Shown: in pieces, positions 34,818 through 49,124 of the stretch | Numbering within the stretch: position 1 is the first letter of the stretch | How the letters are laid out: every line of letters begins with the position of its first letter | Origin: Bacillus nitratireducens | Lineage (GTDB): Bacteria > Bacillota > Bacilli > Bacillales > Bacillaceae_G | DNA: 64,000 nt | Reading direction: 5' to 3' | Assembly (NCBI RefSeq): GCF_001884135.1 | Contig: NZ_MAOC01000078.1 | Location: 62,001-126,000, forward strand | Position numbers and translations under genes: made by a program | Notes under the pieces: generated by a model | Told to the model about the DNA's origin: nothing | What the model saw: only the letters and a program-made list of their open reading frames with translations | The model's database searches: none

Positions 34818-35793
34818 ACTCAGAAATCACTTTCACATACATCCCTCTTATCGCCTTTTCATAAGCGATATCGCTCATCTGTCTTATTTTTTCTGATACG
34901 ACAGACGCCTGAACGATTTTCCCTTCACGAAGTAAGGGCGGGTCAATAAGACGCACTTTATTTTTCTGATGTAGATCATACTCATTTCTATCTTCTTTTA
35001 CTTCTATACTTGGATGAACTTTTCTTAATAAAGCATCTACTTCTTGATCTTTACATAGCTGCAATTTCGTAATAAGCTCATAATCTTCAAGGAGAAAGTC
35101 ATCTGCATGAATAACCTTTTTATGAAGAGCTAATTTTAACGTTTTAGCTAACATATCGTTTCCGTAAATGTTCATTGGCTTCATAAAGAAATCGATTACC
35201 TCTTTGTAATACGTTTCTGTAAACCATTCTGCTATTTCGATATTTTGAATGACCATTTTCCCATCTACTTCGATTACATCCTCTAAAAAACTATGAACTT
35301 CTTCTAAAGAAATATATCCATATGTAAACATATCCCGTAATGTGTAATCCACTCGGTCTGCACATAATTCTGGCGCAGATCTTTCAAGTAAAGTCCACTT
35401 CGAATCATCTAACAAAATATCTTCATAGTTATAACCATGTTTTGAAAGAATCGCCGGGATTTCCGAGTTTTTCACGACAGAACTAAATATTTCTTCATGA
35501 TAACTTTCATTTTCGCTATCAAAAACATAATCAATCACATGAGAAAAAGCAGTATGCGATACGTCATGCAGTAAACCAGCAATCTGTTCTTCTACTGAAC
35601 CACCAAGTTTTTTAATTAACAACATAGCACCAACTGAATGATCAAAGCGCGTTACATTCCATTTCTCATTCATTAAGTAACTTGCTCCGGCTTGATGAAT
35701 CCCTTTCAGCCTTTGCACAGGTTTACTTAAAATTAAGTCTTCTAACACTTTATCTACTTTAAACTCACCGTATATGACATCTGATATGATCAC
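34816..35793 (-). CDS. HD-domain phosphohydrolase
   Basis: 325 residues with an HD-superfamily metal site: H in RFDHSVGAMLL, the HD pair in GLLHDVSHTAFSHV and a later Asp in CADRVDYTLRDM. The pattern is like the dNTPase/YwfO group, which hydrolyses nucleotides. GTG 35793 is the start (GGGGGA upstream). No other domain is seen. The substrate is not known; dNTP or an alarmone is possible. Confidence 0.82.
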   Translation of the reverse strand: MIISDVIYGEFKVDKVLEDLILSKPVQRLKGIHQAGASYLMNEKWNVTRFDHSVGAMLLIKKLGGSVEEQIAGLLHDVSHTAFSHVIDYVFDSENESYHEEIFSSVVKNSEIPAILSKHGYNYEDILLDDSKWTLLERSAPELCADRVDYTLRDMFTYGYISLEEVHSFLEDVIEVDGKMVIQNIEIAEWFTETYYKEVIDFFMKPMNIYGNDMLAKTLKLALHKKVIHADDFLLEDYELITKLQLCKDQEVDALLRKVHPSIEVKEDRNEYDLHQKNKVRLIDPPLLREGKIVQASVVSEKIRQMSDIAYEKAIRGMYVKVISE

Positions 35794-35900
35794 TTAAAAT
35801 CCCCCTTTTTAAGCAGCGTCTTCTTATAGTATCTCTTTTTCCAAAGAGAGTAAATACGGACATTTCGCCCTCTTATATCTATAATTAAAAATATATTGAT

Positions 35901-35990
35901 TTTACATTTATTTTTATGTATATTATAAATGTCTGTTATTTGTTTTAATTCATTTGTTTTTATTGAGCGCTCCTTATATGGAGCCTTTTT
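35901..35990 (+). ncRNA. Candidate small transcript (promoter plus terminator without an ORF)
   Basis: TTTACA (35901-35906), a 17-base spacer and TATAAA (35924-35929) look like a promoter. About 35 bases on, GCTCC-ttatat-GGAGC (35969-35984) is followed by CTTTTTTC, a plus-strand terminator. No plus-strand gene lies upstream that it could serve (the HD gene reads the other way). The predicted RNA would be about 55 nt. The stem is only 5 bp. Confidence 0.3.
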
Positions 35991-36000
35991 TCATTTTTAA

Positions 36001-36029
36001 AAATAGAGAGCACTCAGCTCTCTATTTCA
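36001..36029 (-). terminator. Terminator of the metallophosphoesterase gene
   Basis: On the minus strand AGAGAGC-TGAGT-GCTCTCT is followed by ATTTTTAAAAATG, five bases beyond the gene stop. Confidence 0.8.
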
Positions 36030-36034
36030 TAATC

Positions 36035-37141
36035 CTATTCAAATGTAACTTCAACCTGAACAATCTCAGATCTACTTCCCAGTCTAAGCGGTGGTCCCCA
36101 GAATCCAAACCCAGAAGAAACAATCGCGTGGAATGCACCTTTTTGTGCGTATCCCCAGTCTAGTTCGTACATTCTTCTCGTTACAATATGATTCGGTGCC
36201 ATTTGTCCGCGGTGCGTGTGACCGGATAGTAGTAAATCCACGCCAGCATCCGCTGCTTGTTTCAATTCAAATGGTTGGTGATCCATTGCGATAACAGGAA
36301 GCGATTTATCTACCGTACTCATTAGATTTTCAAAGCTTTGACGATCACGCTCTGTTTTATCCCTTCTTCCAACGAGATAAAAATCATCTTCAATTGTAAT
36401 GACTTCATCTAAAAGAATACGAATATCAATCTTATCCATCTCTTGTAAAAACTCAGGAACAGCTCGGCCGTAATACTCATGGTTTCCTAACACACCATAT
36501 ACGCCTAATGGAGCTTTCATTTGTTTCATAATTGGTCCCATATTTTTTTGAATGAACACACCTGGATGATCATCGATAATATCTCCTGGCAATAAAATAA
36601 TATCCGGCTCCATCTCATTTACATGACGAACGAGTCTCTTTAAATGAGCAACTCCAGACAGTTTACCGAAATGCATATCAGAGGCCATCGCAATGCGTAA
36701 ACTTTTACGCCCTTCTACTTTTTTCGGTATGTGCACTTCGTACTTTCTTACTACTGGACTATATGCGTTGAATACTCCATACGCAAAAATTAAGATGAAC
36801 GCAAGTAACACGGCCGATCCTGTCCAAATAATTGCCGCTTCTTTCTCCACTGAAAACTGTAAAAGAAAGACCATAATATCAGCTAACGGTAATAACATAA
36901 GTGCGTATTGTATGACCGCAAACCAAATTGAACCGACCGTTCGTAAAAATGGCAAGAACTTAAACACTTGTACGAGAATATACGCATATGAAATGAAGCC
37001 AACTACGAAAGCGTAATATCCCCAAGATTCCCAGCCGAACACCGTACTGAGCCAAACCCATCCGTTCCAGCCGATGTAAAACATGAGTAGTGTGTATACA
37101 ATTAAAATAGTGAATATATTGAGATAACGAAAATTTTTCAC
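36035..37141 (-). CDS. Membrane-anchored calcineurin-like metallophosphoesterase
   Basis: 368 residues: about four N-terminal membrane helices (1-125), then a metallophosphoesterase domain with MASDMHFGK, LLPGDIIDDHPG, GVLGNHEYYGR, MDHQPF and LLSGHTHRGQ, i.e. all five metal-binding motifs. This layout occurs in YkuE/YpbG-like enzymes acting on cell-surface or lipid phosphates. GTG 37141 has GGAGG seven bases upstream. The substrate is unknown. Confidence 0.9.
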   Translation of the reverse strand: MKNFRYLNIFTILIVYTLLMFYIGWNGWVWLSTVFGWESWGYYAFVVGFISYAYILVQVFKFLPFLRTVGSIWFAVIQYALMLLPLADIMVFLLQFSVEKEAAIIWTGSAVLLAFILIFAYGVFNAYSPVVRKYEVHIPKKVEGRKSLRIAMASDMHFGKLSGVAHLKRLVRHVNEMEPDIILLPGDIIDDHPGVFIQKNMGPIMKQMKAPLGVYGVLGNHEYYGRAVPEFLQEMDKIDIRILLDEVITIEDDFYLVGRRDKTERDRQSFENLMSTVDKSLPVIAMDHQPFELKQAADAGVDLLLSGHTHRGQMAPNHIVTRRMYELDWGYAQKGAFHAIVSSGFGFWGPPLRLGSRSEIVQVEVTFE

Positions 37142-37310
37142 TGCTAGCCTCCTTATTGATTTCTTCTATTATAACTTGTTATGTGCCTAGAACGTAAATA
37201 GTAAGCAAATCAAAGTGATTTTCTTCTTACTTGTAATCTTCCCGCATTATCATACACTTCTCTTTGTAACCGCTATATTCAAAGCACCTTTATTTTTCTG
37301 TTTTACACTT

Positions 37311-37328
37311 GTGAGAGTTAATACTCAC
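37311..37328. promoter_or_regulatory. Candidate operator 1 upstream of the TetR gene
   Basis: GTGAGAGTTAATACTCAC is an 18-bp near-palindrome (two mismatched pairs) with half-sites GTGAG and CTCAC. It lies 110 bases before the TetR start, in a region that also serves the divergent metallophosphoesterase. Confidence 0.4.
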
Positions 37329-37391
37329 GTGTATATTTATAATAAAGTGAGCATGAATCCGTTTCAATGACCACATTTAATTATTCGAGTA

Positions 37392-37423
37392 TTAATACAC
37401 ACATTACAAGATTTGTGTATTAA
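37392..37423. promoter_or_regulatory. Candidate operator 2 (palindrome) directly before the TetR gene
   Basis: TTAATACACA (37392-37401) and TGTGTATTAA (37414-37423) form a perfect 10-bp inverted repeat with a 12-base spacer, eight bases before the ribosome-binding site. TetR regulators commonly bind such repeats in their own promoters. Confidence 0.55.
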
Positions 37424-37438
37424 AGAACGGAGGAACAT

Positions 37439-37984
37439 ATGGAGAAAATCGATAGAAGAATTATAAAATCACAAACCGCAATTCAATCTGCATTTATAGA
37501 AATGTTAATTGAAGATGGCTTTGACGAAATTACAGTAAAAAACATTACAGAAAAAGCAAACATCGGGAGAAAAACCTTCTACCTACACTACCTAGATAAA
37601 TACAATTTATTAGACAAAATTGTGGACAACCATTTAAATCAATTAAGAGAAATATGCGATATAAAACAAACAAAAGGTTATATAGAAGGAACTGTCATAT
37701 GGTTTGAATACTTCAAAGAACACAAACCATTTTTCGCAGCGTTATTTAGAAGCAACAGCACATTATTATTTCAGAAAAAGTTACTAACTTTTATCATGGG
37801 TGAACTAGAGAAAAAACTAAATACAAATACGTCAGTGAATAAAAACATTGATACACACATCGTTTTAAAATTTTTAGGAACTGCTGTAATGGGCATTTTA
37901 GAATCTTACGTATTAGACGAAATTGATAATGATGTTGAGTATGTTGCGACGCAAGTCGGGGAATTGATGAAGAGGAATATATAA
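37439..37984 (+). CDS. TetR/AcrR-family transcriptional regulator
   Basis: 181 residues. The N-terminal helix-turn-helix (ITVKNITEKANIGRKTFYLH at about 30-49) is typical TetR, and the helical C-terminal domain includes GTAVMGILESYV. ATG 37439 follows ACGGAGGA. Two palindromes upstream suggest autoregulation. It is divergent from the metallophosphoesterase gene (297 bases), a possible target. The ligand is unknown. Confidence 0.88.
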   Translation: MEKIDRRIIKSQTAIQSAFIEMLIEDGFDEITVKNITEKANIGRKTFYLHYLDKYNLLDKIVDNHLNQLREICDIKQTKGYIEGTVIWFEYFKEHKPFFAALFRSNSTLLFQKKLLTFIMGELEKKLNTNTSVNKNIDTHIVLKFLGTAVMGILESYVLDEIDNDVEYVATQVGELMKRNI

Positions 37985-37992
37985 CGGTTATG

Positions 37993-38026
37993 AAAAAGTG
38001 CACCCGAATTGTTGGGTGCACTTTTT
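37993..38026. terminator. Bidirectional terminator between the TetR gene and the propeller-like gene
   Basis: AAAAAGTGCACCC and GGGTGCACTTTTT, a perfect 13-bp stem with an 8-nt loop. Confidence 0.9.
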
Positions 38027-38030
38027 ATAT

Positions 38031-38876
38031 TTATTTAAGTAACTCAACATAATACAGCGTATCATCCGTCTGAAAATACATAACAGATCCGCGGCTATAA
38101 TAAGTAACAAATTGAATCGGTTCTCCTAGTTCATTACGAAGATTCATATCATGCACATGATTATTATTTAAATCATAAACAACCAACTTTTTATCTCGAG
38201 TAATGAATACTACTTTATCTTGAGCGACCGCAAAACTTTCCGACCATATTTCCTTAATTACATTTATTTCATTCCATGACATATGAATTTTTTTATCTTT
38301 CATTTGAACTAAAGGAAATTCTGAATAATAATAGAGCCAAACGTCTCCATCTATAACGTTCATTGCATAACAATCATCTATAGGAGGTACATTAAACCTT
38401 TCTACATATTGATCATAACTATCAAAAATCAATTGACCTTTAGAGTCACAAGCAACTATACCATTTACTCCAATTGGGCACTCTCCGAAAACCCCTTCAT
38501 CACAATAACTAACCCATATATCTTCATTCACATCAACCTGACAATCTTGAATCCCTTCTCCGGCATAAAACTTACAATGTTCACTTCCGTCCGAATTATA
38601 AATAACCGCATTATCTTCTTCATAATTAAATATAAGTAACCATCTCTCTCCAATTCGTTGCATACATTGGACAGATTCAACATCGATATCTACGTTTAAA
38701 TTGAAACTCTTTCTATTTACATTATTTTTATCCAAATAAATAATACAAGGTCGATTCTGCTTGTCTTGTACTAGTAACATTACATTTTGTTTATAATCCA
38801 AACTCATTTTTTTAAACTGATAGGCTTCAACAATAGACTTAAAACTTATTAACTCTTTACATATAATACCTTTCAT
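38031..38876 (-). CDS. Beta-propeller-like protein, paralogue of the next gene
   Basis: 281 residues from ATG 38876 (MKGIICKELISFKSIVEAYQ). There are repeated beta-strand units with W-x-x-Y/F and D-x-x-x-V-F patterns and no signal peptide or membrane helix. It shares a diagnostic stretch with the gene at 38975: GEGIQDCQVDVNEDIWVSYC here, GNGIKYFQVDEEEHLLVGYS there. The end (YSRGSVMYFQTDDTLYYVEL versus FSRDQTIYAVKGKRIFCWEQ) also aligns. A longer frame reaches 38924 without a ribosome-binding site; the start is uncertain. It is the last gene of the minus-strand immunity-like array; the function is unknown. Confidence 0.6.
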   Translation of the reverse strand: MKGIICKELISFKSIVEAYQFKKMSLDYKQNVMLLVQDKQNRPCIIYLDKNNVNRKSFNLNVDIDVESVQCMQRIGERWLLIFNYEEDNAVIYNSDGSEHCKFYAGEGIQDCQVDVNEDIWVSYCDEGVFGECPIGVNGIVACDSKGQLIFDSYDQYVERFNVPPIDDCYAMNVIDGDVWLYYYSEFPLVQMKDKKIHMSWNEINVIKEIWSESFAVAQDKVVFITRDKKLVVYDLNNNHVHDMNLRNELGEPIQFVTYYSRGSVMYFQTDDTLYYVELLK

Positions 38877-38917
38877 ATAGATGAAAATCCTCTCATTGAT
38901 TCTAAACATAAAAATAA

Positions 38918-38952
38918 GCGTCAAACTTCTATACTTTTAATAAGTTTGACGC
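38918..38952 (-). terminator. Terminator between the two propeller-like paralogues
   Basis: GCGTCAAACTT (38918-38928) pairs with AAGTTTGACGC (38942-38952); on the minus strand TTATTTTTATG follows. Confidence 0.8.
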
Positions 38953-38974
38953 TCGCTCTCAATCACTTCTCTAT

Positions 38975-39904
38975 TTATTCTCCCTCTTCTAAAATCCCAT
39001 ATTGCTCCCAACAAAATATTCGTTTCCCTTTAACAGCATATATTGTTTGATCCCTTGAAAAAATATACTCAAATTGAATAGGCTTTCCATCGCTATCTAC
39101 TGTTAACAGAGTTGCTAATTTTTTATTTACAAGTGAATATGCATGTATTTGATTGTTATCTACACCAAAGATAATATTATTTTGTACTTTTAAATATAGT
39201 GATGTATGATTCAATGTTGTTTCATACAGAATAACTTGTTCGCACCGTTCTTTATTAATTTGTGTGAATGTATACGTTCCTTGCTCGTTATAGTAAGACA
39301 TTAAAATATCACCTGTCTTCTGTATATGTATCGCTGTACAATCACAGATAGATTTATTTATTGAATTATTAAATTCATTAGTAATTAAATCGCCATTCTT
39401 AGAAAAAATAGCTAATCCGCTCTTTTCAAATTTATTAATATCATATATATTTTCCCAATCTATCGAATCAAATTCTTCATCTGAAATAAACAATTCCTCT
39501 ACAGAAGTAAATATACCTTCTTCACTATATCCAACCAATAAATGTTCTTCTTCATCAACTTGAAAATATTTTATTCCATTTCCTAAGTAATATGAAGCAA
39601 CGATATTTCCTTTTTTATCAAAAATTGTAGCCGTTGTATCGTCCTTTTTCTCAACGAAACTTTTAACCAAAACCCAATCTTCTCCTAAAGGTTGAATGAA
39701 GTTAAAATATTGATTATTTTCTATAGTATAGTGTTTCAAAACGCCAGATTTCAACGAGTGTATAATTTTATAATGATAAATGTCTGTAACCTTTTTATCC
39801 AATACTAAAATTATAATATCTTGTTTATTTCCCGTTGTAATGCAGAGAATTTCTCCTTCTATATATGAAAAATCCATCCGCTTATTAAATACTAGTTTTC
39901 CCAC
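38975..39904 (-). CDS. Beta-propeller-like protein, tandem paralogue
   Basis: 309 residues from GTG 39904, chosen because GGAGG is ten bases upstream; the in-frame TTG at 39913 is too close. Beta-rich throughout, without signal peptide or membrane helix. It aligns along most of its length with the gene at 38031 but carries an acidic insertion (VEELFISDEEFDSIDWENIY). It lies directly downstream of a YD-repeat toxin remnant (39972-40151), the expected place for an immunity gene. A named family is not recognised. Confidence 0.6.
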   Translation of the reverse strand: MGKLVFNKRMDFSYIEGEILCITTGNKQDIIILVLDKKVTDIYHYKIIHSLKSGVLKHYTIENNQYFNFIQPLGEDWVLVKSFVEKKDDTTATIFDKKGNIVASYYLGNGIKYFQVDEEEHLLVGYSEEGIFTSVEELFISDEEFDSIDWENIYDINKFEKSGLAIFSKNGDLITNEFNNSINKSICDCTAIHIQKTGDILMSYYNEQGTYTFTQINKERCEQVILYETTLNHTSLYLKVQNNIIFGVDNNQIHAYSLVNKKLATLLTVDSDGKPIQFEYIFSRDQTIYAVKGKRIFCWEQYGILEEGE

Positions 39905-39971
39905 AACTAACAAACCTCCAATGAATCAATAACAATCTAATTCCTATCACTCCTGGAAACCTTCTTTTTAT

Positions 39972-40151
39972 TTATACTTTTACAATCGATCCAAGCTGCT
40001 TCCCATCACTGAATGTTGCTGTTACAGACTTTATTTCTTTTCCACTCTCTACAACTTTAACACTTGTACGGTTTCTAAAACTATCATATATGCAAGATTC
40101 ACTTCTTCCCTCTTGTAATGTCGCGTTTAAAACGTTAGTGCATTGGATCAT
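39972..40151 (-). pseudogene. RHS/YD-repeat toxin remnant 1
   Basis: A 59-codon frame reads VLNATLQEGRSESCIYDSF then RNRTSVKVVESGKEIKSVTA and TFSDGKQL before a stop. This is a worn copy of YD-repeat sequence as found in B. cereus RHS proteins (ETLQNGT, YTYDGFGNRTSVKVVENGKE, TFNDGNQL). No ribosome-binding site precedes it and no toxin tip follows. It matches remnant 2 at 41928, and both sit just upstream of an immunity-like gene. Confidence 0.7.
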
Positions 40152-40160
40152 AATCCATAA

Positions 40161-40193
40161 AAAAAGAAGAACCTACGTCAGCTCTTCTTTTTA
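40161..40193 (-). terminator. Terminator of the TPR-like gene
   Basis: AAAAAGAAGA and TCTTCTTTTT pair around a GC-containing inner stem (AACCTACGTCAGC). It lies about 50 bases after the stop at 40244. Confidence 0.7.
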
Positions 40194-40243
40194 GAAATCA
40201 CGTTTCTATTATGAATTTAAATATTCAACTGAACATCCATTTT

Positions 40244-40681
40244 TCATAAATTCTCTTTTATATAATTTTTAGCTACTTCATTATTTGGGTCATCTTTTAA
40301 TATTTCTTTTGCCCAATTCATAGCTGATTTTTCTTCAAAAACATTCTCTGGAATACCAGCAAAAAACAATAGAAACTCTCTATATTGCATATTATTAGGT
40401 TCCAATTCTATACACTTCTTTGCATGATAAAAAGCAGCTACATATGCCCCCTCTAAATGACATAGTGGATGACATAAAATATCTGATGCTAGTGAATGTA
40501 ATCTAACATCACTTCGACTCTCTAAATAACTAGTCAAGAAAGTGTATACAATAATATTCGGTTCATTAAAAGACCATTCCATTAATAAGTCTTCTAATTC
40601 CTCAATACTTATTTTATTTGCATGTGCTATCGCATTTCCAATATCTCCTCGATAAATTTCATCTTTTAACAAATCATGCAT
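40244..40681 (-). CDS. TPR-like helical protein, candidate immunity protein
   Basis: 145 residues from ATG 40681 (GGTGG upstream). All-helical, with a TPR-like pair near the C-terminus (AYVAAFYHAKKCIELEPNNM, AMNWAKEILKDDPNNEVAKN). No signal peptide is present. It is part of the minus-strand array of unrelated small cytosolic proteins that follow toxin remnants, so an immunity role is inferred from context; nothing in the protein proves it. Confidence 0.6.
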   Translation of the reverse strand: MHDLLKDEIYRGDIGNAIAHANKISIEELEDLLMEWSFNEPNIIVYTFLTSYLESRSDVRLHSLASDILCHPLCHLEGAYVAAFYHAKKCIELEPNNMQYREFLLFFAGIPENVFEEKSAMNWAKEILKDDPNNEVAKNYIKENL

Positions 40682-40961
40682 TATTTCACCACCCATTCGA
40701 TATATATCTTCTCTTCTTCACATACGTAACCGTTACCTGTTTCCCTTTTACTTTCATTTATTTTTATTAATAATAAGACGAAGCTCTATTTCTTTTAAGT
40801 TTTTAGAAAGATATTTAAAACGATAAAAAAAAGCGTAGTAGTTACTACTACAACACTTTTAATCCATTCAAATCTATTTCATAAAAAATAAACACATTAA
40901 TTATCTAAATAATACTGTGATGCACTTATAAATAGTTCTAATTTTATACTCCTACTGCTAT

Positions 40962-41123
40962 TTATTCCATAATACGTTCTTCCGCATAACAAACAAATAC
41001 TTGCTTTTCCGAACGTAAAGATACTATATAATACTCATTTTCAAAATTATCATGTACATCTAACACTAGAAAATATTCGTTATTTTCCGTTGCAGGTTTG
41101 TGTATTTCAATGTATGTGTCCAT
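40962..41123 (-). CDS. 53-residue small protein in the immunity-like array
   Basis: ATG 41123 has AAGGAGA seven bases upstream. The product begins MDTYIEIHKPATENNEYFLV, continues LDVHDNFENEYYIVSLRS and ends CYAEERIME: an acidic beta-rich small domain with alternating hydrophobic residues. It is too short for a 60-residue cutoff, but the ribosome-binding site and composition support it. No family is recognised. It lies between the TPR-like gene and a 22-bp palindromic terminator. Confidence 0.5.
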   Translation of the reverse strand: MDTYIEIHKPATENNEYFLVLDVHDNFENEYYIVSLRSEKQVFVCYAEERIME

Positions 41124-41174
41124 GGTTTCTCCTTAAAAATAATTTTTTACATCACCATGACATATATAAAGAGA

Positions 41175-41196
41175 GAAGAGCTTATATAAGCTCTTC
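41175..41196 (-). terminator. Palindromic terminator in the immunity-like array
   Basis: GAAGAGCTTA-TA-TAAGCTCTTC, a perfect palindrome followed by T-rich sequence on either strand. The same core recurs at 43109-43138, marking duplicated unit borders. Confidence 0.75.
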
Positions 41197-41245
41197 TTTC
41201 TAAAAATCATTTCTCTATTTATTTCCCCTCATACTTCACACCTTC

Positions 41246-41479
41246 TCACGAAAGTTCTCCAGTAAAGAATAAATAAACTATTATAACGCCTAAACCTATC
41301 GAAAATATTCTAAACAAATAATAACTTATAGTTAGAATAATTGGAAACGCACTTGTCAAACTGAACAATGCAATAAACATACGATTTTCTTTATAAGTCT
41401 TTTTATCTATTTTTAATCCTAACCATATAAAACTAATACCTATAAAAAAAGCACACAAATCTAAAAGAAAATCTATCAT
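41246..41479 (-). CDS. Small two-to-three-TM membrane protein (paralogue A)
   Basis: 77 residues: MIDFLLDLCAFFIGISFIWL, a short basic loop (GLKIDKKTYKENR), then two hydrophobic stretches ending VYLFFTGELS. It aligns with the protein at 42168 along its length: G-x-x-I-D-K-(K/E)-T-(Y/F)-K, FSLxxxFPIxLxxSxYLF(R/K)-x-FSIG. Its ATG overlaps the stop of the Imm44-like gene (41476-41479), so the two are coupled. Confidence 0.65.
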   Translation of the reverse strand: MIDFLLDLCAFFIGISFIWLGLKIDKKTYKENRMFIALFSLTSAFPIILTISYYLFRIFSIGLGVIIVYLFFTGELS

Positions 41480-41901
41480 AATTCGAGAAAACTCGCTTTA
41501 ATATCAAAAACTTGTAAAATATCTTGTTCTAACTTTATTGCATTAAAATCAGACTTTGCCCTCTTACCCAATATCCTAATAGATTGAATAATGTTTTTGA
41601 TTATTAATATTTTTCTCCCTGAATCATCTGCCAACAAAAATGTTTCATAATCAATCCTTAATCTAAAATCTGCTTCTTTACTCTTCCTTTTAAAGAGCTT
41701 TCTTTCTTTATGAAAACCCGCATCTTCATATTCCGGATTTATGTTAACTACTATAGGGATTATAGCTATTTCTTCTACTTCGCTACCATAATTATTACTA
41801 TTTAATTTTTCAAGGTCACTACTGATTTCTGAAATTATATTTATAAATTCCTCAGCAATGTCTCCTTCTAATTCACCACTTAAAAAAAACCTCATAATCA
41901 C
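41476..41901 (-). CDS. Imm44-like candidate immunity protein
   Basis: 141 residues. It begins MIMRFFLSGELEGDIAEEFI, then has IAIIPIVVNI, FRLRIDYETFLLADDSGRK and an ILxxIxxSIRIL helix. The F(L/M)SGE start, the central IPI strand and the RLxIDY strand fit what I recall of the immunity protein 44 family that protects against polymorphic toxins. The assignment is tentative. It lies 26 bases beyond YD-repeat remnant 2, exactly where a cognate immunity gene would follow a toxin, and is coupled to a membrane protein gene. Confidence 0.5.
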   Translation of the reverse strand: MIMRFFLSGELEGDIAEEFINIISEISSDLEKLNSNNYGSEVEEIAIIPIVVNINPEYEDAGFHKERKLFKRKSKEADFRLRIDYETFLLADDSGRKILIIKNIIQSIRILGKRAKSDFNAIKLEQDILQVFDIKASFLEL

Positions 41902-41927
41902 TCACCCTTTTCAATAATCGCTTTTAT

Positions 41928-42026
41928 TTAGCGGGGGACGATTTCCATTTTAACACTAGTACGGTTTCCAAATCCATCGTATGTGTATGATTTACTTGTT
42001 CCATTTTGTAATGTCTCGTTTAAAAT
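41928..42026 (-). pseudogene. RHS/YD-repeat toxin remnant 2
   Basis: A short open stretch reads ILNETLQNGTSKSYTYDGFG then NRTSVKMEIVPR and a stop: an unmistakable YD-repeat unit with TYDGFGNRTSVK. A TAA lies immediately upstream in frame, so no complete gene is possible. The first 24 residues match remnant 1 at 39972 apart from substitutions, so both came from related RHS genes. Confidence 0.75.
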
Positions 42027-42050
42027 TTAATTCATTGAATCACGATTCAA

Positions 42051-42086
42051 AAAGAAAGAAGAGCCACTTTCAGCTCTTCTTTCTTT
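42051..42086 (-). terminator. Terminator of the second membrane-protein unit
   Basis: AAAGAAAGAAGAGC and GCTCTTCTTTCTTT form a perfect 14-bp stem with an 8-nt loop. Confidence 0.85.
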
Positions 42087-42167
42087 ACAAATCTCTATAT
42101 TATCATCAATAATTATTTTCTTCTTAACCTCTCAAGTACTTACACACTAAGTAATAATAAATTATAA

Positions 42168-42407
42168 CTAAAAATAACTATATACATCATAAAAAATCGA
42201 ATATAATATAGCTGCTCCTACACCGATCGAAAATACCTTAAACAAATAAAAACTGAAAGACAGTACGATTGGGAATGGTGTTAATAAAGAAAATAGCAGT
42301 GAGTTAACACGCTGCTTTTTAAAAGTTTCTTTATCTATTATAATTCCAAAAATTATAATTCCACAGGCTATAAAAAAACACAGTACCATAAAAAAAATGT
42401 CTTCCAT
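42168..42407 (-). CDS. Small two-to-three-TM membrane protein (paralogue B)
   Basis: 79 residues: MEDIFFMVLCFFIACGIIIF, then GIIIDKETFKKQR and two hydrophobic stretches (LLFSLLTPFPIVLSFSFYLF and FSIGVGAAILYSIF). It is homologous to the protein at 41246, which follows a different candidate immunity gene. AGGAGAG precedes ATG 42407. Two copies behind two unrelated partners suggest that the membrane protein is a common accessory or that units were duplicated and re-partnered. Confidence 0.65.
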   Translation of the reverse strand: MEDIFFMVLCFFIACGIIIFGIIIDKETFKKQRVNSLLFSLLTPFPIVLSFSFYLFKVFSIGVGAAILYSIFYDVYSYF

Positions 42408-42470
42408 ATATCTCTCCTACTTTATTATTATTTTTTAAAGGACCTTATCTATATTTTTAGTAGGCTCTAC

Positions 42471-42935
42471 TTACAATCCATTCGGTAACATAACAGCCAT
42501 AAACAAGTCACTTCTCTCACCTGGTGCTATATATATTCCTTCTGCATCTAAATATTCAATGGAAAAGGCTGCTAGCTCATACGCCATTTCTTGATCGCAT
42601 TCAAAAAGTGAATTTATAAAAACCTCACTTCCTGTAATCTTTTGTAAATCTTTCAAACAGTTAGACTTACTTCTTGCATAATCAGCCACATTCTCATTAG
42701 CCCAAGACCACATCCAACTGTTACTCTTTCCAGACCAAGAACCTATAAAAACAACACTAAATTCAAGTAACACTTGACCATTTTTTTTAAACTGTAATAT
42801 ACATTGATCTTGATCATACCAATACTCATCAAAGTTATAGATATTATAATCCGAAATGAATTTTTGCTGTTTACTTTCTAATTTGTCATAACACATACCA
42901 AGATAATTCTCGAATTGTTCATCCGTCATTGTCAA
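42471..42935 (-). CDS. DUF6882-like candidate immunity protein
   Basis: 154 residues from TTG 42935 (AAAGGAG ten bases upstream). It has helical flanks with a central beta segment and the pattern VVFIGSWSGKSNSWMWSWAN followed by a C-terminal ITGSEVFINSLFECDQEMAY, which fits DUF6882 as I remember it. Proteins of this group are often encoded near polymorphic toxins. It is soluble, with no signal peptide. It sits upstream of membrane paralogue B with a 63-base gap. Confidence 0.55.
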   Translation of the reverse strand: MTMTDEQFENYLGMCYDKLESKQQKFISDYNIYNFDEYWYDQDQCILQFKKNGQVLLEFSVVFIGSWSGKSNSWMWSWANENVADYARSKSNCLKDLQKITGSEVFINSLFECDQEMAYELAAFSIEYLDAEGIYIAPGERSDLFMAVMLPNGL

Positions 42936-43001
42936 TTATCACACGCTCCTTTACTTCAAGATTCCCGCTACAAACAATATATCTTACTCTCTCAAAACCT
43001 A

Positions 43002-43061
43002 TATAAAGTGAAACTTTAATCAGCCCTCACCAATTGGGCTTTTATGGGCAGACTGTCCCCC
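43002..43061. repeat. Eroded bcr-like repeat
   Basis: ATAAAGTGAAACTTTAATCA is followed after a deletion by CACCAATTGGGCTTTTATGG, GCAGACTGTC and CCCCCAC. The order matches the 15077 copy, missing its first hairpin and its end. Confidence 0.5.
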
Positions 43062-43108
43062 ACATATCATATACGTTTCTACCACTAAGCTATCTTAATA
43101 TATACAAA

Positions 43109-43138
43109 GAAACAAGAGCTTATATAAGCTCTTGTTTC
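43109..43138 (-). terminator. 30-bp perfect palindrome, likely terminator of the RraB-like unit
   Basis: GAAACAAGAGCTTA and its complement around a central TA. It shares AAGAGCTTATATAAGCTCTT with 41175-41196. Confidence 0.7.
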
Positions 43139-43195
43139 CATAAATAGTTTCTTTACTCAGTCTAATTTATTTTATCACGATAAGTAAATTCACTA

Positions 43196-43513
43196 TTACA
43201 CAAATGTCCCCCAACCATCTGTATATCCACCAAACTCTTCACCCAGTTTATTCAATTCCTTTTGCATCTCTACAATATCCTCATAAATTAAGAACATTTC
43301 TTTAGAACAAGTACAAGTCCAATCTTCAAATTCTTCATTATAATCTAATTCACAATTTAAGCCCTGCTCTTGTAATTTGCCAATTATTTTTTCTCCATTA
43401 CCTTAATCAGGAATTGCAATAAAGAAATCCACTATATGTTTTTTATTAAAATCTATACCTTGTTTATATAACATATTTAATACTTATCCATCTTCATCTT
43501 TTGGGAATTTCAT
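43196..43513 (-). pseudogene. RraB-like (regulator of ribonuclease activity B) gene with two in-frame ochre stops
   Basis: One frame of 106 codons from ATG 43513 (AAAGGAG upstream) reads MKFPKDEDG-stop-VLNMLYKQGIDFNKKHIVDFF-stop region-GEKIIGKLQEQGLNCELDY...EEFGGYTDGWGTFV, with TAA at 43486-43484 and 43405-43403 and no frameshift. FPxDEDGxVLxxLxxxGxD and the end GGxxDGWGTxV are RraB/DUF-type signatures. The first TAA probably replaced CAA (Gln). Everything else is conserved, so loss is recent, or both sites are sequence errors. Confidence 0.7.
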
Positions 43514-43528
43514 TTTTTTCTCCTTTCA

Positions 43529-44380
43529 TTATACCTTTTTAAAAGATAACTTTTTATGTGAATAATGTTTCTTATCTGTAAAGCTCACATATTCTATTCC
43601 TTCACAAAAACTTAAATCTCCATCGACAACAGTACTACCTACAAAAGAAAAACAATTTAGTTCTTTTAATTTTTTTATAAAACCTATTGTTGGTATATCT
43701 CCGCAGTCTAATAAACGTAATATTTCTAGAGACTCTAAATATTGAATACTACAGAATGTTTCTATATTTTTACACATCTCAATTTCCAAACTAGTCAATT
43801 TTTCACTTGTATATTTTAGAGATTCTATTGATTTTAATGTACGAAGATAAAATAATTGTAAAGACTTTAAATTTCCGAAACTTTCAATTCCACTAAGTGA
43901 ATCAATTTTTGATTGAGTAATTTTAAAGTATTCTAGCCCTCGTAATTTTTCTAATTCCTTCAAGTCTCTATTTTTAGGATTGTATTTCCATAAAGAAAGT
44001 GATTTTAAATTCGTTAGTTCCTCTAAGCCTGTCACTTTTTTATCACAGTACATCGCCAAGCTCTCTAAGTTTGTTAATTTATTTAACTCTAATTTAAAAT
44101 TAGAGTCTATTACTGCTATATCTTGAAGTTTATTCAAATTATATATACTAGATACATCTTTTAAAAACATGTTATCTAACATTAAATGGGTAATATTTTC
44201 ACACTCACTTAAAAAGTTAATATCTTCCAATTCATAGTACATATCAGATATTTGCACTCCAGAAATATTAAACATATTAATATATTCTATACATTCACCT
44301 AAGTTTTTTTGAGATACTAATACAGTTTCCCCATGTTCATCTTCTCTTACATAAAAACCATTTTTGTATTTTAAGTTCAT
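43529..44380 (-). CDS. Leucine-rich-repeat protein, candidate immunity protein
   Basis: 283 residues with about eight irregular LRRs (L-x-x-L-x-x-L with 20-24 residue spacing, e.g. LNKLTNLESLAMYCDKKVTG, LEELTNLKSLSLWKYNPKNR, SLSGIESFGNLKSLQLF). It begins MNLKYKNGFYVREDEHGETV. No signal peptide or anchor is present, so it is cytosolic, unlike internalin-type LRR proteins. Cytosolic LRR proteins of this size occur among toxin-immunity neighbourhoods. It is 15 bases upstream of the RraB-like pseudogene in the same direction. Confidence 0.7.
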   Translation of the reverse strand: MNLKYKNGFYVREDEHGETVLVSQKNLGECIEYINMFNISGVQISDMYYELEDINFLSECENITHLMLDNMFLKDVSSIYNLNKLQDIAVIDSNFKLELNKLTNLESLAMYCDKKVTGLEELTNLKSLSLWKYNPKNRDLKELEKLRGLEYFKITQSKIDSLSGIESFGNLKSLQLFYLRTLKSIESLKYTSEKLTSLEIEMCKNIETFCSIQYLESLEILRLLDCGDIPTIGFIKKLKELNCFSFVGSTVVDGDLSFCEGIEYVSFTDKKHYSHKKLSFKKV

Positions 44381-44818
44381 CTACTACTCCTTAATATCAT
44401 GTTTATGTGTCGTATGTTCTATAAAAAAATAATTACTATACAAATGAGGTTATTCTCCTCATTATACTTATTTTCACAAATAGAATGGCATATTAATTCA
44501 TTTTATATCATCTTAATAGCAATAATCCAAACACCTATTTTCACAATAAAAAGACTATCTAAAATTTAATTTAAAATAGTCTTTCATTATATATTACCCT
44601 ACAACTTGCGTTCCTCATCCATCATAACTAACATATATATAGATTTAGAATAGGGTGATAACACTTTTATTTTAGAACTTACTCCTGATTTCAAGACATT
44701 CATTAACAATCTATATTAACTATTGCTGATAGATATTAGTTCTCACCGTTTTTTTATTTGTAAAAAGAGAAGCTGCACAGTTTGAACTATACAGCTTCTC
44801 TTTTTTCTAAATACCTTG
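44381..44818. other. Gap with two terminators and a possible gene tail
   Basis: 44550-44585 (AAAGACTAT/ATAGTCTTT) and 44762-44806 (AAAAAGAGAAGCTG/CAGCTTCTCTTTTTT) are hairpins; the second ends the 556-residue gene. Between them a 34-codon minus frame (44703-44599) reads MNVLKSGVSSKIKVLSPYSK then SIYMLVMMDEERKL, which resembles a real protein end without its beginning. Nothing else is supported. Confidence 0.4.
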
Positions 44819-46489
44819 TTATCTTTCGCGTACTTCAAACACATTTCCACTAATACAAGTAAAATACAATAAGTTATTTGTTTTAATGACCTCATATATG
44901 GAATCAGAATCCAAAATAAACTTTGGTAAATATAATGTGAATTCTACCTTACCAGATTTTATGTCTAAGCATTTTACTTCAAGTTCATGTGAAGACATAT
45001 AGATCTTACCTTCCACATATCTCGGAGCTCTTATCACGTCATGTCCAAACCTTGTTTCCCACTTAATTTGGTTATGTACTAAATCTATACAATAGACTTT
45101 TCCATTCTTCATAACTGCAACACACATATTATCAACTAAGTTAGGTTCAAGTTGTATTTCACCTGATAATAAGCATTTATATATTTCTTTGCCATCGTCT
45201 ACTCCAAAAAATTGAAGACATGTTTTCCGTTCTGCTTCATCGTCCATATCAGGTATATGTCTAACCAAACCTATCTTTAAGTTATCAGCTATCACATATA
45301 AATAATCCTCTTCTTCAATCTCTATCTCAAAGATTAATTCTGGTGATTCTTTTTTCAAATTCCACCTTTGAATACGCTCCATTCCCACTATTAAAGCCAT
45401 ATGATTTTCTATATATGTAGGAGTATTGGGGCGACAATCAATATTTTCTCTCCATAAAATATTACTATTTAAGTCAACAGCTGTCATACAAACTATATAG
45501 GGATCAATTATTTCTCCTTCTTCATAACATTCTCCTATCAGAACATAATAATCAGAAAACAGTCGCACCTTCAAATTTTCTCCACCAATTCCAGTATATA
45601 CAGTCTGTTTCTCTTTTCCTGTTTGAATATCTAATATGATGTTCAAACCGTAATCCATCACAACCATTACGTCTAATACATTATTTGGTAGGAGATAAAC
45701 CCCTTTTATTTCTCCTTCCAATTCTAACTCCCATAATTTCTTTCCATCTTTTGCAGACATGCACACAAGTTTTGATTCTTCCTCTTCTCTACTAATATCT
45801 CCTACAAAAACCTTATCATCTTGTTGACAGAATACAATTCCACTCTCAACAAAATTGAGATGTTCCGTCCAAAGTGTTTTTTTATTCAACATGTCTATTT
45901 TACTAAACTTATGCGCTGGTCCATTTCCAACATATAAAAAGTCGTTGTCACTTGAGAATTGAGGAAGAATTTCTATATTCCTTTCATTTTTCAGGTCACT
46001 CCAGCTTATTTCATAACGACTTTCACTTGAATATTTCCGATAAACATTCAAGTTTCCATTAGTAATGAAGTCCTCATCTAGATTTTCTAAGTCAATTATC
46101 TGTTTATAAGCGGCATTCAAATTAAAATCTTCTGGTACTTTACTAATTAATTTCTCTATATGCTCCTTACAAAAATCAAATACAACATTAAAAAACTGTA
46201 CTCTTTCAACTGAAATAATTTCTTTACTACTACTAATATTAATCATATTTTCTTGTTGAATAAATCTTAGAGTCTTCTCATAGTTATCTAAGAATAATGT
46301 AGCCTCTTTATACTTTAAAAGATTTACCCACACATCAAAAAATTGTATTAAGGGCTCTATAATATTAGTCTCTTCTTCATAAATGATTTTTTCATCTATG
46401 AGGAAAATTATTTTACCTCTTAACATTTCCAACTCGTCTTCATTAAAATATTCCAGTTTTATATTAAATCCTTCTTTTATTTTCCCCAT
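44819..46489 (-). CDS. PQQ-type beta-propeller protein, candidate immunity protein of the WHH nuclease
   Basis: 556 residues: an N-terminal helical domain of about 140 residues (MGKIKEGFNIKLEYFNEDEL onward), then seven to eight propeller blades with the PQQ/quinoprotein-like pattern (DKVFVGDISREEEESKLVCM followed by SAKDGKKLWELEL; IDLVHNQIKWETRFG; LDIKSGKVEFTLYL). No signal peptide, so not a periplasmic dehydrogenase. It starts 29 bases after the WHH toxin fragment, the usual place for the cognate immunity gene. Binding of the nuclease is inferred. Confidence 0.65.
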   Translation of the reverse strand: MGKIKEGFNIKLEYFNEDELEMLRGKIIFLIDEKIIYEEETNIIEPLIQFFDVWVNLLKYKEATLFLDNYEKTLRFIQQENMINISSSKEIISVERVQFFNVVFDFCKEHIEKLISKVPEDFNLNAAYKQIIDLENLDEDFITNGNLNVYRKYSSESRYEISWSDLKNERNIEILPQFSSDNDFLYVGNGPAHKFSKIDMLNKKTLWTEHLNFVESGIVFCQQDDKVFVGDISREEEESKLVCMSAKDGKKLWELELEGEIKGVYLLPNNVLDVMVVMDYGLNIILDIQTGKEKQTVYTGIGGENLKVRLFSDYYVLIGECYEEGEIIDPYIVCMTAVDLNSNILWRENIDCRPNTPTYIENHMALIVGMERIQRWNLKKESPELIFEIEIEEEDYLYVIADNLKIGLVRHIPDMDDEAERKTCLQFFGVDDGKEIYKCLLSGEIQLEPNLVDNMCVAVMKNGKVYCIDLVHNQIKWETRFGHDVIRAPRYVEGKIYMSSHELEVKCLDIKSGKVEFTLYLPKFILDSDSIYEVIKTNNLLYFTCISGNVFEVRER

Positions 46490-46518
46490 AATGCCCTACC
46501 TCCAGTATGGCCAGTTTT

Positions 46519-46859
46519 TTAATGTGTCCAAGTATTAACTAATTGCATGTCTCCTGGATTTTGATGGTGATGCCACGTATAACTTTTTGGATTTTTTCCA
46601 GACCGTATTAGTTTTAACTCAGCTATATTAAACTTACTTTGATATTTCTTATATGCTTCTTTATTTAAATAATCAAATTGGGATGCATTACTTTTTTCCA
46701 ATAATATTGTGGAAGCTTCATAAACTCCCTGCATATGTATGCAACAACCTCTCCTGATTGTTGATTCATATTTGACTCATTCTTATACGATTTCGGTAAT
46801 ACAAAGACATCTTCTTTCTTCTTATCTAAGAATTTAATGAATTTTAGAAAGAAACTCAA
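46519..46859 (-). pseudogene. Broken WHH-type nuclease toxin tip (polymorphic toxin C-terminus)
   Basis: Two overlapping frames together read as one toxin end. Frame 1 (from 46859) has VLPKSYKNESNMNQQSGEVV then AYI; frame 2 (from 46734) has MQGVYEASTILLEKSNASQF, YKKYQSKFNIAELKLI and SYTWHHHQNPGDMQLVNTW. The WHHHQ-P-G-MQLV motif is the core of the WHH family in the HNH/Endo VII superfamily, found at the tips of RHS/LXG toxins. There is no upstream delivery domain, and a frameshift lies near 46735. The catalytic His pair is still present. Confidence 0.65.
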
Positions 46860-47180
46860 TTAAAAAAATGGAAGATTTTAAAGAAAGATATCAATTCCGA
46901 CTCTTTATCGACAATTTTCCATTTTCTATTCCATAATTCATTACATTTAATTAAAATATATTTATATACAAATAATTATTAAACAAGGTGTACTATCTAC
47001 CTTATTTACGTTTAATAAATAAGGGGAATACAAGAAATTAAACCCATAAAATCTCTTTCCTTCATTACCTATTCCCCTTAATATACCGATCAGTAGCATC
47101 AATTTCTTCTAAAAATCCTTATCCCAAAAACAAAAAAATGCAGCCCCTATACGTACTCATATAGGGACTGCACCTTATTA
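46860..47180. other. Gap upstream of the toxin fragment
   Basis: No gene is seen. It contains a hairpin-like pair CCTTATTTA/TAAATAAGG (47000-47024), a loose A/T-rich inverted repeat around 46862-46925 (AATGGAAGATTTT/AATTTTCCATT), and the cys operon terminator at 47139-47172. The rest of the toxin gene is missing from here. Confidence 0.45.
47139..47172 (-). terminator. Terminator of the sulfate ABC operon
   Basis: On the minus strand TGCAGTCCCTAT pairs with ATAGGGGCTGCA and is followed by TTTTTTTG; it lies eight bases from the cysA stop. Confidence 0.88.
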
Positions 47181-48254
47181 TTAAATCACAAAATCCTCCG
47201 GAATAAACACCTTCACTTCTCTCGGATGTACATATACAAACTCACCTGTTTGAATGTTAAGCTTTCTAAACTGTTCTTTACTAATTTCCGCTTCTAAATA
47301 TTCATCTGTTCCGTCTCGCTTCAATTCTACATATACGACAGGGCCAACTGCGTGAGAGTATGTTACTTTCGCCGGGATGGCATCTATACTTTGTTTCGTA
47401 CGATCGATTGATAAGTGATGTGGTCTTACGTATCCCACTCCGTCTACGTTTGAAACGTGCTTATGCTCTGGTGCTTCTAGTTCCACTGATCCTACATTTA
47501 GCTTACCTTTATGAACGCGGCCGTGAAATAAATTCACGTTTCCTAAAAAGTCATATACGAACGGACTTGCTGGTTTTTCATACACTTCTTCCGGTGTTCC
47601 CATTTGTTCAATGCGCCCTTCATTCATTACAACGATGCGGTCCGCAACGTCTAGCGCTTCTTCTTGATCATGCGTTACGAATACGCTCGTAATTTGAAAT
47701 TCGTCATGTAGTTTCCGGAGCCATCTTCGCAATTCTTTCCGTACTTTTGCATCAAGTGCACCAAACGGTTCATCTAACAATAAAATTTTCGGTTCTACTG
47801 CAAGTGCCCGGGCTAGCGCGATACGTTGACGTTGTCCGCCAGATAATTGCGCTGGATAACGTTTTGCGAAACCATCCATTTTTACTAGCTTCAATAGTTC
47901 TGTTACTTTTTCTTCTATTACTTCTGCTGAGGGCCTTATACTTTTCTTTCTTACTTTTAAACCGAAAGCGACATTTTCAAATACATTCATATGTTTAAAA
48001 AGTGCATAGTGCTGAAAAACAAAACCGACTTGCCTGTTTTTCACGTGAATATTTGTTAAATCTTCTCCATCAAATGAAATAGTGCCTCCATCCGCTTCTT
48101 CTAATCCTGCAATAATTCGTAATAACGTCGTTTTCCCAGAACCTGATGGGCCTAATAAAGCGACCAGTTCACCTTTTGGAATATCCAAATGAATGTCTGT
48201 CAGCGCTTGAAATGTACCATATTGTTTTGACACATTTTGAATTTGAATACTCAT
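47181..48254 (-). CDS. cysA: Sulfate/thiosulfate ABC transporter ATP-binding protein
   Basis: 357 residues from ATG 48254. Walker [12 protein letters not shown], signature [15 protein letters not shown] and Walker [16 protein letters not shown] are intact; a TOBE-type regulatory domain fills the C-terminal 110 residues. It energises sulfate import through CysT-CysW. The start is placed after AAGGGGTG; the GTG nine bases upstream lies within that site. It lies 12 bases from cysW, the last gene of the sbp-cysT-cysW-cysA operon. Confidence 0.93.
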
Positions 48255-48266
48255 CGCACTCACCCC

Positions 48267-49124
48267 TTATTGTCGTTTTTCCATTCTCCATTCAATCCAG
48301 TTTTTTATAACGAGCGTAAAAACTGCGATGAGTGACATTAAAGTCGCCACAGCGAACGCTGCTGAAAATTGATATTCATTGTACAAAATTTCAATATGAA
48401 GCGGCATCGTATTTGTAACGCCGCGCACGTGACCAGACACAACGGAAACCGCTCCGAATTCACCAATGGCCCGGGCGTTACATAAAATCATGCCGTATAA
48501 AAGGCCCCATTTTATATTAGGTAATGTAACGCGCCAAAACATTTTCCAGCCGCTTGCGCCAAGTGATAGAGCTGCTTCTTCTTCACTCTTTCCTTGCGCC
48601 TGCATAACCGGGATTAATTCACGCGCAACGAACGGAAACGTAACAAAGATTGTCGCAATGATAATACCGGGGACAGAGAAGATGAGTTTTATCCCATGTT
48701 CCATTAACCATCCGCCAAAGGCTGCACGAGGTGTAAAAAGTAAAACAAATACTAATCCCGCAATGACTGGTGATACAGCAAACGGCAGTTCAATAAGAGA
48801 TAATAATAGTTGCTTTCCTTTAAACTGAAACTTTGTAATAAGCCAAGCCGCTGCTATTCCGAATATCGTATTCAGCGGCACAACGATTAAAGCAACGAGA
48901 AGTGTTAACCTGATTGCCAAAAATGCTTCTTGATCTGTTACAGCGGCAATATATACATCAATTCCTCGTTCGAACGCTTTCATAAAAATTGTCACGAGCG
49001 GCAGTAATAGAAAGAGAGATAAAAATAAAATTGTTATCGTAATGAATAAAATTGGTACAAACTTAGATTCTTTTTTAACTGATACGCTTTTTACTATTTT
49101 CTTTTCTAATAATGTTGGTTCCAT
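48267..49124 (-). CDS. cysW: Sulfate ABC transporter permease CysW
   Basis: 285 residues with six membrane helices and the binding-protein-dependent permease EAA loop (EEEAALSLGASGWKMFWRVT-LP), plus the CysW-type RAIGEFGAVSVVSG segment. It pairs with CysT to form the sulfate channel. A TOBE/ATPase partner (cysA) follows, and cysT is 11 bases upstream. Confidence 0.92.
   Translation of the reverse strand: MEPTLLEKKIVKSVSVKKESKFVPILFITITILFLSLFLLLPLVTIFMKAFERGIDVYIAAVTDQEAFLAIRLTLLVALIVVPLNTIFGIAAAWLITKFQFKGKQLLLSLIELPFAVSPVIAGLVFVLLFTPRAAFGGWLMEHGIKLIFSVPGIIIATIFVTFPFVARELIPVMQAQGKSEEEAALSLGASGWKMFWRVTLPNIKWGLLYGMILCNARAIGEFGAVSVVSGHVRGVTNTMPLHIEILYNEYQFSAAFAVATLMSLIAVFTLVIKNWIEWRMEKRQ

What the first reader, a model, noticed from the sequence alone, without database searches (positions are those of the whole stretch)
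38031..46859. Graveyard of polymorphic toxins with an intact array of immunity-like genes
Seen: nine intact small minus-strand genes without sequence relation to one another (except two paralogue pairs), two YD-repeat scraps, one frameshifted WHH nuclease tip and one RraB-like pseudogene, each group closed by its own palindromic terminator. Known: RHS toxins diversify by replacing their C-terminal tip, leaving behind immunity genes ('orphan' modules). Inference: successive tip replacements at an RHS locus left these genes, and those retained still protect against siblings. Several proteins here (TPR-like, LRR, 53-aa, the propeller pair) match no immunity family I can name and could be new ones.
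Basis: partly seen in the sequence, partly recalled or inferred. Interest (0 to 1): 0.75.

Follow-up and report, generated by a model that had tools for sequence, protein, structure and literature searches.

The report
Orphan immunity-gene array beside toxin scraps
A row of intact small genes that look like antidotes to bacterial contact toxins, left standing after the toxin genes beside them decayed; this is a known kind of locus, but two of its protein families look like antidote families not yet catalogued.

Summary
A 9-kb minus-strand stretch carries ten intact genes, two YD-repeat stubs, a broken WHH nuclease tip and an RraB-like gene with two internal stops, in units each closed by a predicted hairpin. 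Both stubs map to the same YD repeat of long RHS genes, 214-217 residues before the conserved ARYY core (9 of 10 best hits), and share one ~160-nt terminator-plus-stub segment; five RHS queries found no other convincing RHS trace in the window. Relatives support an immunity reading for four families: Imm44 directly follows a long RHS frame; LRR follows RHS-type GIY-YIG toxins; the 150-aa family stands directly behind Ntox35 sequence in 6 of 14 genomes; propeller homologues lie near RHS cores more often than chance (5 of 33 genomes; 0.09 expected), though 28 of 33 do not. The BamB-like propeller protein starts just after the broken WHH tip. The 53-aa protein, the membrane pair and DUF6882 stay unassigned. 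Best explanation: displaced toxin-immunity cassettes whose toxins were lost while immunity genes stayed. The mechanism is known (Zhang 2012; Kirchberger 2017). New here: an Ntox35 partner family, a propeller family, and toxin stubs caught between the immunity genes.

The parts
46519..46776 (-). C-terminal remnant of a WHH / colicin-DNase-type nuclease tip; frame broken
   Evidence: Pfam Colicin-DNase 5.8e-12, WHH 8.8e-9; 19 of 249 genomes have relatives, whose frames run on through an HTGG/HSGG-type tail in 19 of 19 (by eye)
46665..46859 (-).
   Evidence: no family hit
44819..46489 (-). 556-aa protein, helical N-part plus PQQ/BamB-like propeller; positional immunity partner of the WHH tip
   Evidence: PQQ_2 2.2e-13, over cut-off; BamB chains 2e-4; starts 29 nt after the stop of the WHH frame; no match at E 1e-20 in 249 genomes or at 1e-5 in the plasmid collection
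44757..44810 (-). hairpin closing the WHH/propeller unit
   Evidence: I8; -29.6 kcal/mol, z -8.5
43529..44380 (-). 283-aa leucine-rich-repeat protein (Imm-LRR type)
   Evidence: homologues directly behind RHS/YD-type GIY-YIG toxins in L164 and L166 and in the array behind an RHS gene, L138
43196..43483 (-). RraB-like pseudogene with in-frame stops
   Evidence: PF06877 on both pieces; two internal stops; intact relatives in arrays with SUKH and other immunity-type genes in L029, L035, L036, not in L034
43108..43139 (-). terminator-like hairpin, shared stem family
42471..42935 (-). 154-aa DUF6882 protein
   Evidence: PF21813 2.4e-29; 2 of 239 genomes; no toxin seen beside it by eye in L031-L033
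42168..42407 (-). 79-aa membrane-type protein, paralogue of 41246-41479
   Evidence: hydrophobicity judged by eye
42053..42095 (-). terminator-like hairpin, shared stem family
41928..42026 (-). YD-repeat stub b, remnant of an RHS gene
   Evidence: RHS_repeat 4.7e-5; 214-217 aa before the ARYY core of 5 of 5 RHS genes compared
41476..41901 (-). Imm44 immunity protein
   Evidence: PF15571 5.5e-51; 59% identical homologue 23 nt behind a 1276-aa RHS frame in L030
41246..41479 (-). 77-aa membrane-type protein
   Evidence: hydrophobicity judged by eye
41174..41201 (-). terminator-like hairpin, shared stem family
40962..41123 (-). 53-aa protein, unassigned
   Evidence: no match in Pfam or NCBIfam, in 30 genomes or in plasmids
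40834..40852 (-). terminator-like hairpin behind the 53-aa gene
40244..40696 (-). 150-aa protein; family found behind Ntox35 toxin domains
40163..40190 (-). terminator-like hairpin, shared stem family
39972..40151 (-). YD-repeat stub a, remnant of an RHS gene
   Evidence: 217 aa before the core in 4 of 5 RHS genes; shares the ~160-nt terminator-plus-stub segment with stub b
38975..39913 (-). 312-aa propeller-like protein 2
38031..38924 (-). 297-aa propeller-like protein 1
   Evidence: homologues 38-41% identical; strand-rich low-confidence model whose top structural hits are propellers
37993..38026 (-). hairpin closing the array, between it and the converging TetR-type gene

Best explanation
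This is an array of orphan (displaced) immunity genes from an RHS-type polymorphic toxin locus. Each unit once was a cassette: an end-piece of an RHS gene with its toxin tip, then the cognate immunity gene, then a terminator. New tips arriving at the RHS gene pushed older cassettes downstream. Later the tips and RHS core were lost, in two units down to one YD repeat, in one unit to a broken WHH nuclease, while the immunity genes stayed open, most likely because they protect against toxins still made by neighbours. Shown: RHS origin of the stubs, shared stub boundary, repeated terminator-stub segment, and toxin-adjacent homologues of Imm44, LRR, the 150-aa family and the propeller family. Inferred: the order of events, protection today, and the pairing of each gene with a lost toxin. 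The 150-aa protein most likely neutralises Ntox35-type RNases, the LRR protein GIY-YIG nucleases, the 556-aa protein the WHH nuclease.
For: YD stubs: best hit is the same repeat in 5 long RHS genes carrying 9-12 YD motifs each in the stretch held; offset to the ARYY core -217 or -214 in 9 of 10 best hits. No other RHS trace in the window (tblastn of 5 RHS genes; next hits E 0.70 and 0.90). Terminator plus stub is one repeated segment. Living counterparts: L030, a 1276-aa RHS frame, Imm44 23 nt later, then an orphan RHS piece with an HNH-like end and a partner gene; L138, RHS gene followed by two DUF7003, a propeller, DUF4240, WapI, SUKH-like (just under cut-off) and LRR genes on one strand; L136, propeller gene 56 nt behind an RHS stop, with two more propeller paralogues downstream; L135, propeller gene 138 nt behind an orphan RHS tip. 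Ntox35 directly upstream of the 150-aa gene: by Pfam in L037, L046, L049, L050, L051, frames overlapping by 1-13 nt, and by tblastn also in L044 and L053. Propeller-RHS proximity: 5 of 33 genomes against 0.086 expected, P 8e-9. L081: one open frame joins half a propeller to a WapI immunity domain. No anti-phage model matches any of 10 proteins.
Against: 28 of 33 genomes carry the propeller gene more than 7 kb from any RHS core, and 8 of 14 genome loci of the 150-aa family show no Ntox35. In one of the five near cases, G131, the core is 6.4 kb away and has a stop inside. Imm44 and DUF6882 are too rare in the sample for statistics. The window has no main RHS gene, so the source locus is inferred. 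Four of ten intact genes have no toxin link. The 7-kb limit was chosen after seeing the loci.
Confidence: 0.82

Rival explanations
1. A true heterogeneous polyimmunity locus: immunity genes gathered one by one from elsewhere by recombination, the toxin scraps being hitch-hikers. (Not exclusive of the best explanation.)
For: Such loci are described for bacilli, including Imm44 and LRR genes (PMC3482391); related arrays without a toxin gene seen by eye exist in L029 and L035/L036.
Against: Scraps stand where the toxin of a unit would stand, two of them with one common boundary; units are closed by separate hairpins, unlike the single message proposed for polyimmunity loci.
Confidence: 0.2
2. Unrelated accessory genes of mixed function that share an insertion hot spot; only Imm44, LRR and the stubs belong to toxin biology.
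For: Propeller and 150-aa relatives are often lone genes between housekeeping-type genes (by eye); DUF6882, the 53-aa and the membrane proteins have no toxin neighbours in the loci seen.
Against: Propeller-RHS enrichment, propeller-WapI fusion, overlapping Ntox35 pairs.
Confidence: 0.12
3. A defence island against phages.
For: Cluster of small unrelated genes, one with LRRs.
Against: No PADLOC model matches any of 10 proteins at E 0.01.
Confidence: 0.03

Closest known systems
Immunity-gene arrays by sequential effector displacement (Vibrio cholerae T6SS; PMC5361080, passages seen)
   Same: Strings of unrelated orphan immunity genes left by repeated cassette insertion with loss of the older effector.
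   Different: Here an RHS/YD protein of a Bacillus-like host (host not told); effector stubs and separate hairpins remain between the genes; no main effector gene in view.
Orphan Rhs toxin/immunity modules (Salmonella PMC3967940, passages seen; rhs C-terminal displacement PMC2935791, listing only)
   Same: Displaced RHS end-pieces with partial core sequence upstream of an immunity gene.
   Different: The tips are gone or broken here; only one YD repeat remains in each stub, against 522 bp shared with the main gene in Salmonella.
Heterogeneous polyimmunity loci (PMC3482391, passages seen)
   Same: Co-directional genes of unrelated immunity families, Imm44 and LRR among them.
   Different: Described as never interrupted by toxin cassettes and as probably one message; here toxin remnants and predicted terminators interrupt.
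PefE of Proteus mirabilis T6SS (PMC5714391, passages seen)
   Same: An immunity protein predicted to be a bladed propeller.
   Different: Other secretion system; sequence relation to the window's propellers was not tested.

Membership tests
Orphan RHS immunity array (sequential displacement) | RHS core remnants at the head of units, upstream of an immunity gene | tested here: met
   two stubs, same repeat and boundary, ahead of Imm44 and of the propeller pair
Orphan RHS immunity array (sequential displacement) | Array genes belong to families that stand behind toxin tips elsewhere | tested here: met
   met for Imm44, LRR, 150-aa and propeller families; not for 53-aa, membrane pair and DUF6882
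Orphan RHS immunity array (sequential displacement) | Main rhs gene in the same locus | tested here: not met
   no RHS gene in the 64 kb; it may be lost or elsewhere, so the array is called a relic of such a locus, not a complete one
Heterogeneous polyimmunity locus | Four or more tandem, co-directional immunity genes of unrelated families | tested here: met
   and the relatives above; immunity function itself inferred
Heterogeneous polyimmunity locus | Not interrupted by toxin genes or cassettes | tested here: not met
   YD stubs lie between the genes; the WHH remnant lies at the head of the array
Heterogeneous polyimmunity locus | Short spacing, probably one message | tested here: inconclusive
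   seven predicted hairpins at unit ends speak against one message; transcription was not measured
Heterogeneous polyimmunity locus | Content differs between strains of a species | not testable with these tools
   no close relative held
Imm44 (PF15571) | Profile score over the curated cut-off | tested here: met
   172.5 bits against 25
Ntox35 immunity partner (150-aa family) | Gene directly behind the Ntox35 domain | tested here: met
   for relatives in 6 of 14 genomes and 1 of 4 plasmids; the window copy has no Ntox35 beside it
Ntox35 immunity partner (150-aa family) | Neutralises the toxin | not testable with these tools
   bench assay needed
Beta-propeller fold (propeller pair) | Bladed four-stranded repeats | tested here: inconclusive
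   model pLDDT 55; the top Foldseek hits are WD40, NHL and BamB propeller chains at TM ~0.4; weak profile hit to a designed propeller, E 0.014

The most novel reading that the evidence does not exclude
The array contains two immunity families without a model in Pfam-A or NCBIfam as searched: a ~150-aa family that pairs with Ntox35 RNase toxins, for which the 2012 catalogue lists no immunity protein, and a ~290-aa propeller family used as RHS immunity protein and in one case fused to WapI. The locus also catches the change from toxin cassettes to a pure immunity array half way.
Probability: 0.6. Interest if true: 0.55.

Novelty: new member of a known kind. Interest (0 to 1): 0.42.

Why it matters
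Immunity-gene strings have been explained as leftovers of tip replacement, while polyimmunity loci were described as free of toxin cassettes between the genes. A locus with matching toxin stubs at one fixed boundary supports the leftover model directly. The two unnamed families would extend the list of antidotes to bacterial contact toxins, and the Ntox35 pairs in plasmid and chromosomal relatives are short enough for a standard neutralisation test.

Tried and rejected
Own genome: not held. A genome-contig scan with the flanking TetR gene gave 5 loci, the best 65% identical, from other genera by record title; their synteny was not examined. Plasmid and phage DNA searches with the whole array: no match. 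Viral contigs with the propeller alignment, the 150-aa and the 556-aa proteins: none confirmed. Plasmids with Imm44, the 53-aa, one membrane protein and the 556-aa protein: no match. Rfam on 34000-50000: nothing. Structure of the 556-aa protein: pLDDT 39, not used. A claim that propeller immunity proteins are unknown was dropped after PefE was found; two more papers were checked for 'propeller' and gave nothing of the kind. A tree of 41 propellers puts neither the seven RHS-linked rows nor the two window copies in one clade, and three long rows are unsure. dN and dS of the membrane pair, 0.50 and 1.20, and of the propeller pair, 0.84 and 2.0, are too near saturation to prove selection. Loci with an ORF of two or more YD motifs: 4 of 35 propeller loci against 0 of 20 control loci, too few controls to stand alone; a 36th locus, L139, gave no propeller ORF and was left out. 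The rival odds are not exclusive and do not sum to one.
Full report
What is there. The stretch 38031-46776 on the minus strand holds ten intact genes: propeller pair (297 and 312 aa), 150 aa, 53 aa, membrane-type pair (77 and 79 aa), Imm44 (141 aa), DUF6882 (154 aa), LRR (283 aa) and a 556-aa protein with PQQ/BamB-like blades. Among them lie two YD stubs, an RraB-like gene with two in-frame stops and, at the head, a broken WHH/colicin-DNase tip. Seven unit ends form predicted hairpins, z from -2.8 to -8.5. Four hairpins share one stem that occurs nowhere else in the 64 kb.

The stubs are RHS remnants. Five long RHS genes from other genomes were compared (L030, L122, L135, L136, L138; open frames 1332 to 2359 aa, some cut in the stretch held), each with 9 to 12 YD motifs in that stretch. 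The best hit of stub b is the same repeat in 5 of 5 and that of stub a in 4 of 5; the repeat begins 217 residues (214 in L122) before the conserved ARYY core. The exception, stub a against L122, picks another repeat at E 0.029. Both stubs sit behind the same terminator in a shared segment of about 160 nt, so they go back to one junction. In relatives, DNA similarity of orphan RHS pieces to their main gene starts at other points: worked out from those coordinates, 16 to 180 residues before the core. Apart from the stubs the five RHS genes hit the window only at E 0.70 and 0.90.

Imm44. The window protein passes the Imm44 cut-off widely. Its 59% identical homologue in L030 starts 23 nt behind a 1276-aa RHS frame, followed on the same strand by a displaced RHS piece with an HNH-like end (profile score under cut-off) and a partner gene without a Pfam match, a living version of the layout seen here.

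The 150-aa family. Homologues were found in 14 of 259 genomes and 4 plasmids. Ntox35 sequence lies directly upstream in 6 of 14 (L044, L046, L049, L050, L051, L053) and 1 of 4 (L037); Pfam confirms five of these (L037, L046, L049, L050, L051), whose frames overlap the 150-aa gene by 1 to 13 nt. L044 and L053 were not scanned with Pfam. The toxin frames of L046 and L050 are short (95 and 73 aa). L046, L049, L050 and L053 are alike, as are L037 and L051, so these are about three lineages, not seven independent cases. No Pfam or NCBIfam model reaches its cut-off on the window protein, and NCBIfam gave nothing for two relatives. The 2012 catalogue gives no immunity protein for Ntox35; the only paper found with 'Ntox35' and 'immunity' is that catalogue.

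The propeller family. Found in 33 of 348 genomes. Rhs core domains occur in 11 of those 33. In 5 of 33 the propeller gene lies within 7 kb of a core, with 0.086 expected (the limit was set after looking; in G131 the core has a stop and is 6.4 kb off). In L136 the gene starts 56 nt behind the RHS stop and two paralogues follow downstream (E 1.8e-48 and 5.4e-16 with a profile made without the L136 rows); in L135 it follows an orphan RHS tip by 138 nt; in L138 and L122 it lies in the array behind an RHS gene. In L081 half a propeller is joined in one open frame to a WapI immunity domain; this was seen in one genome. Against this, 28 of 33 genomes have it elsewhere. The fold rests on weak evidence: model pLDDT 55 with propeller chains as top Foldseek hits and a profile hit of E 0.014 to a designed propeller. 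Of 22 members scanned, Pfam matched one to Reg_prop at E 0.003 and one to an unrelated phage family at 0.0075.

LRR, RraB, WHH and the 556-aa protein. LRR homologues occur in 8 of 150 genomes (9 places); in L164 and L166 they directly follow toxin genes with RHS or YD-shell parts and a GIY-YIG tip (the L166 tip scores under cut-off), and L138 has one in its RHS array. RraB-like genes stand beside a SUKH gene in L029 and among SUKH, LRR-like and WapI genes in L035/L036, which are alike; in L034 they do not. WHH relatives occur in 19 of 249 genomes; 7 of 19 loci hold a SUKH-like gene, as does a B. velezensis plasmid by annotation. The window's WHH remnant has the 556-aa protein there instead, starting 29 nt after the stop of the nuclease frame; it has no match at E 1e-20 in 249 genomes, so its role rests on position alone.

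Unassigned. DUF6882 was found in 2 of 239 genomes and three loci in all, without a toxin seen beside it. The 53-aa gene gave nothing. One of the two membrane-type proteins was searched in plasmids and gave nothing.

Prior knowledge. Zhang et al. 2012 (PMC3482391, passages) describe strings of immunity genes as remnants of tip replacement, polyimmunity loci without toxin cassettes, Imm44 and LRR genes in such loci, and an excess of immunity genes in B. cereus and relatives; they had found no propeller among immunity proteins. PefE of Proteus, an immunity protein, was later predicted to be a propeller (PMC5714391, passages). Kirchberger et al. 2017 (PMC5361080, passages; author name recalled) give the displacement model for Vibrio. 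Koskiniemi et al. 2014 (PMC3967940, passages) show orphan Rhs modules. Garrett et al. 2022 (PMC9484751, abstract and outline) treat recombination among tandem T7SS immunity genes. Jackson et al. 2009 (PMC2935791) was seen as a listing only.

Verdict. The locus is a relic orphan immunity array of an RHS system, not a strict polyimmunity locus. The kind is known; the added value lies in two unnamed candidate immunity families and in the preserved toxin stubs.

Noticed in passing
window 12315-14097, minus strand: A 328-aa protein with a WXG100-like head (PF06013 8.1e-6, just under its cut-off) followed by an unnamed 253-aa gene: possibly a second, T7SS-type toxin-immunity pair about 24 kb from the array.
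   Followed up: partly
L136:4989-11274: Three propeller paralogues in one RHS locus, with DUF7003 between them and a YxiJ gene next.
   Followed up: partly
L081:1033-1899: One open frame joining half a propeller to a WapI immunity domain.
   Followed up: partly
L138:3521-4936: Two DUF7003 genes directly behind an RHS gene; DUF7003 may be an immunity family.
   Followed up: no
L030:7104-7778 and L029:13223-13978: An unnamed ~225-250 aa family, alike by eye, behind an orphan RHS tip in L030 and in an immunity-type array in L029; no Pfam match.
   Followed up: no
L044:1941-2117 and L053:1935-2192: Ntox35 sequence in front of the 150-aa-family gene found only by tblastn; whether the toxin frames are open there was not checked.
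   Followed up: no
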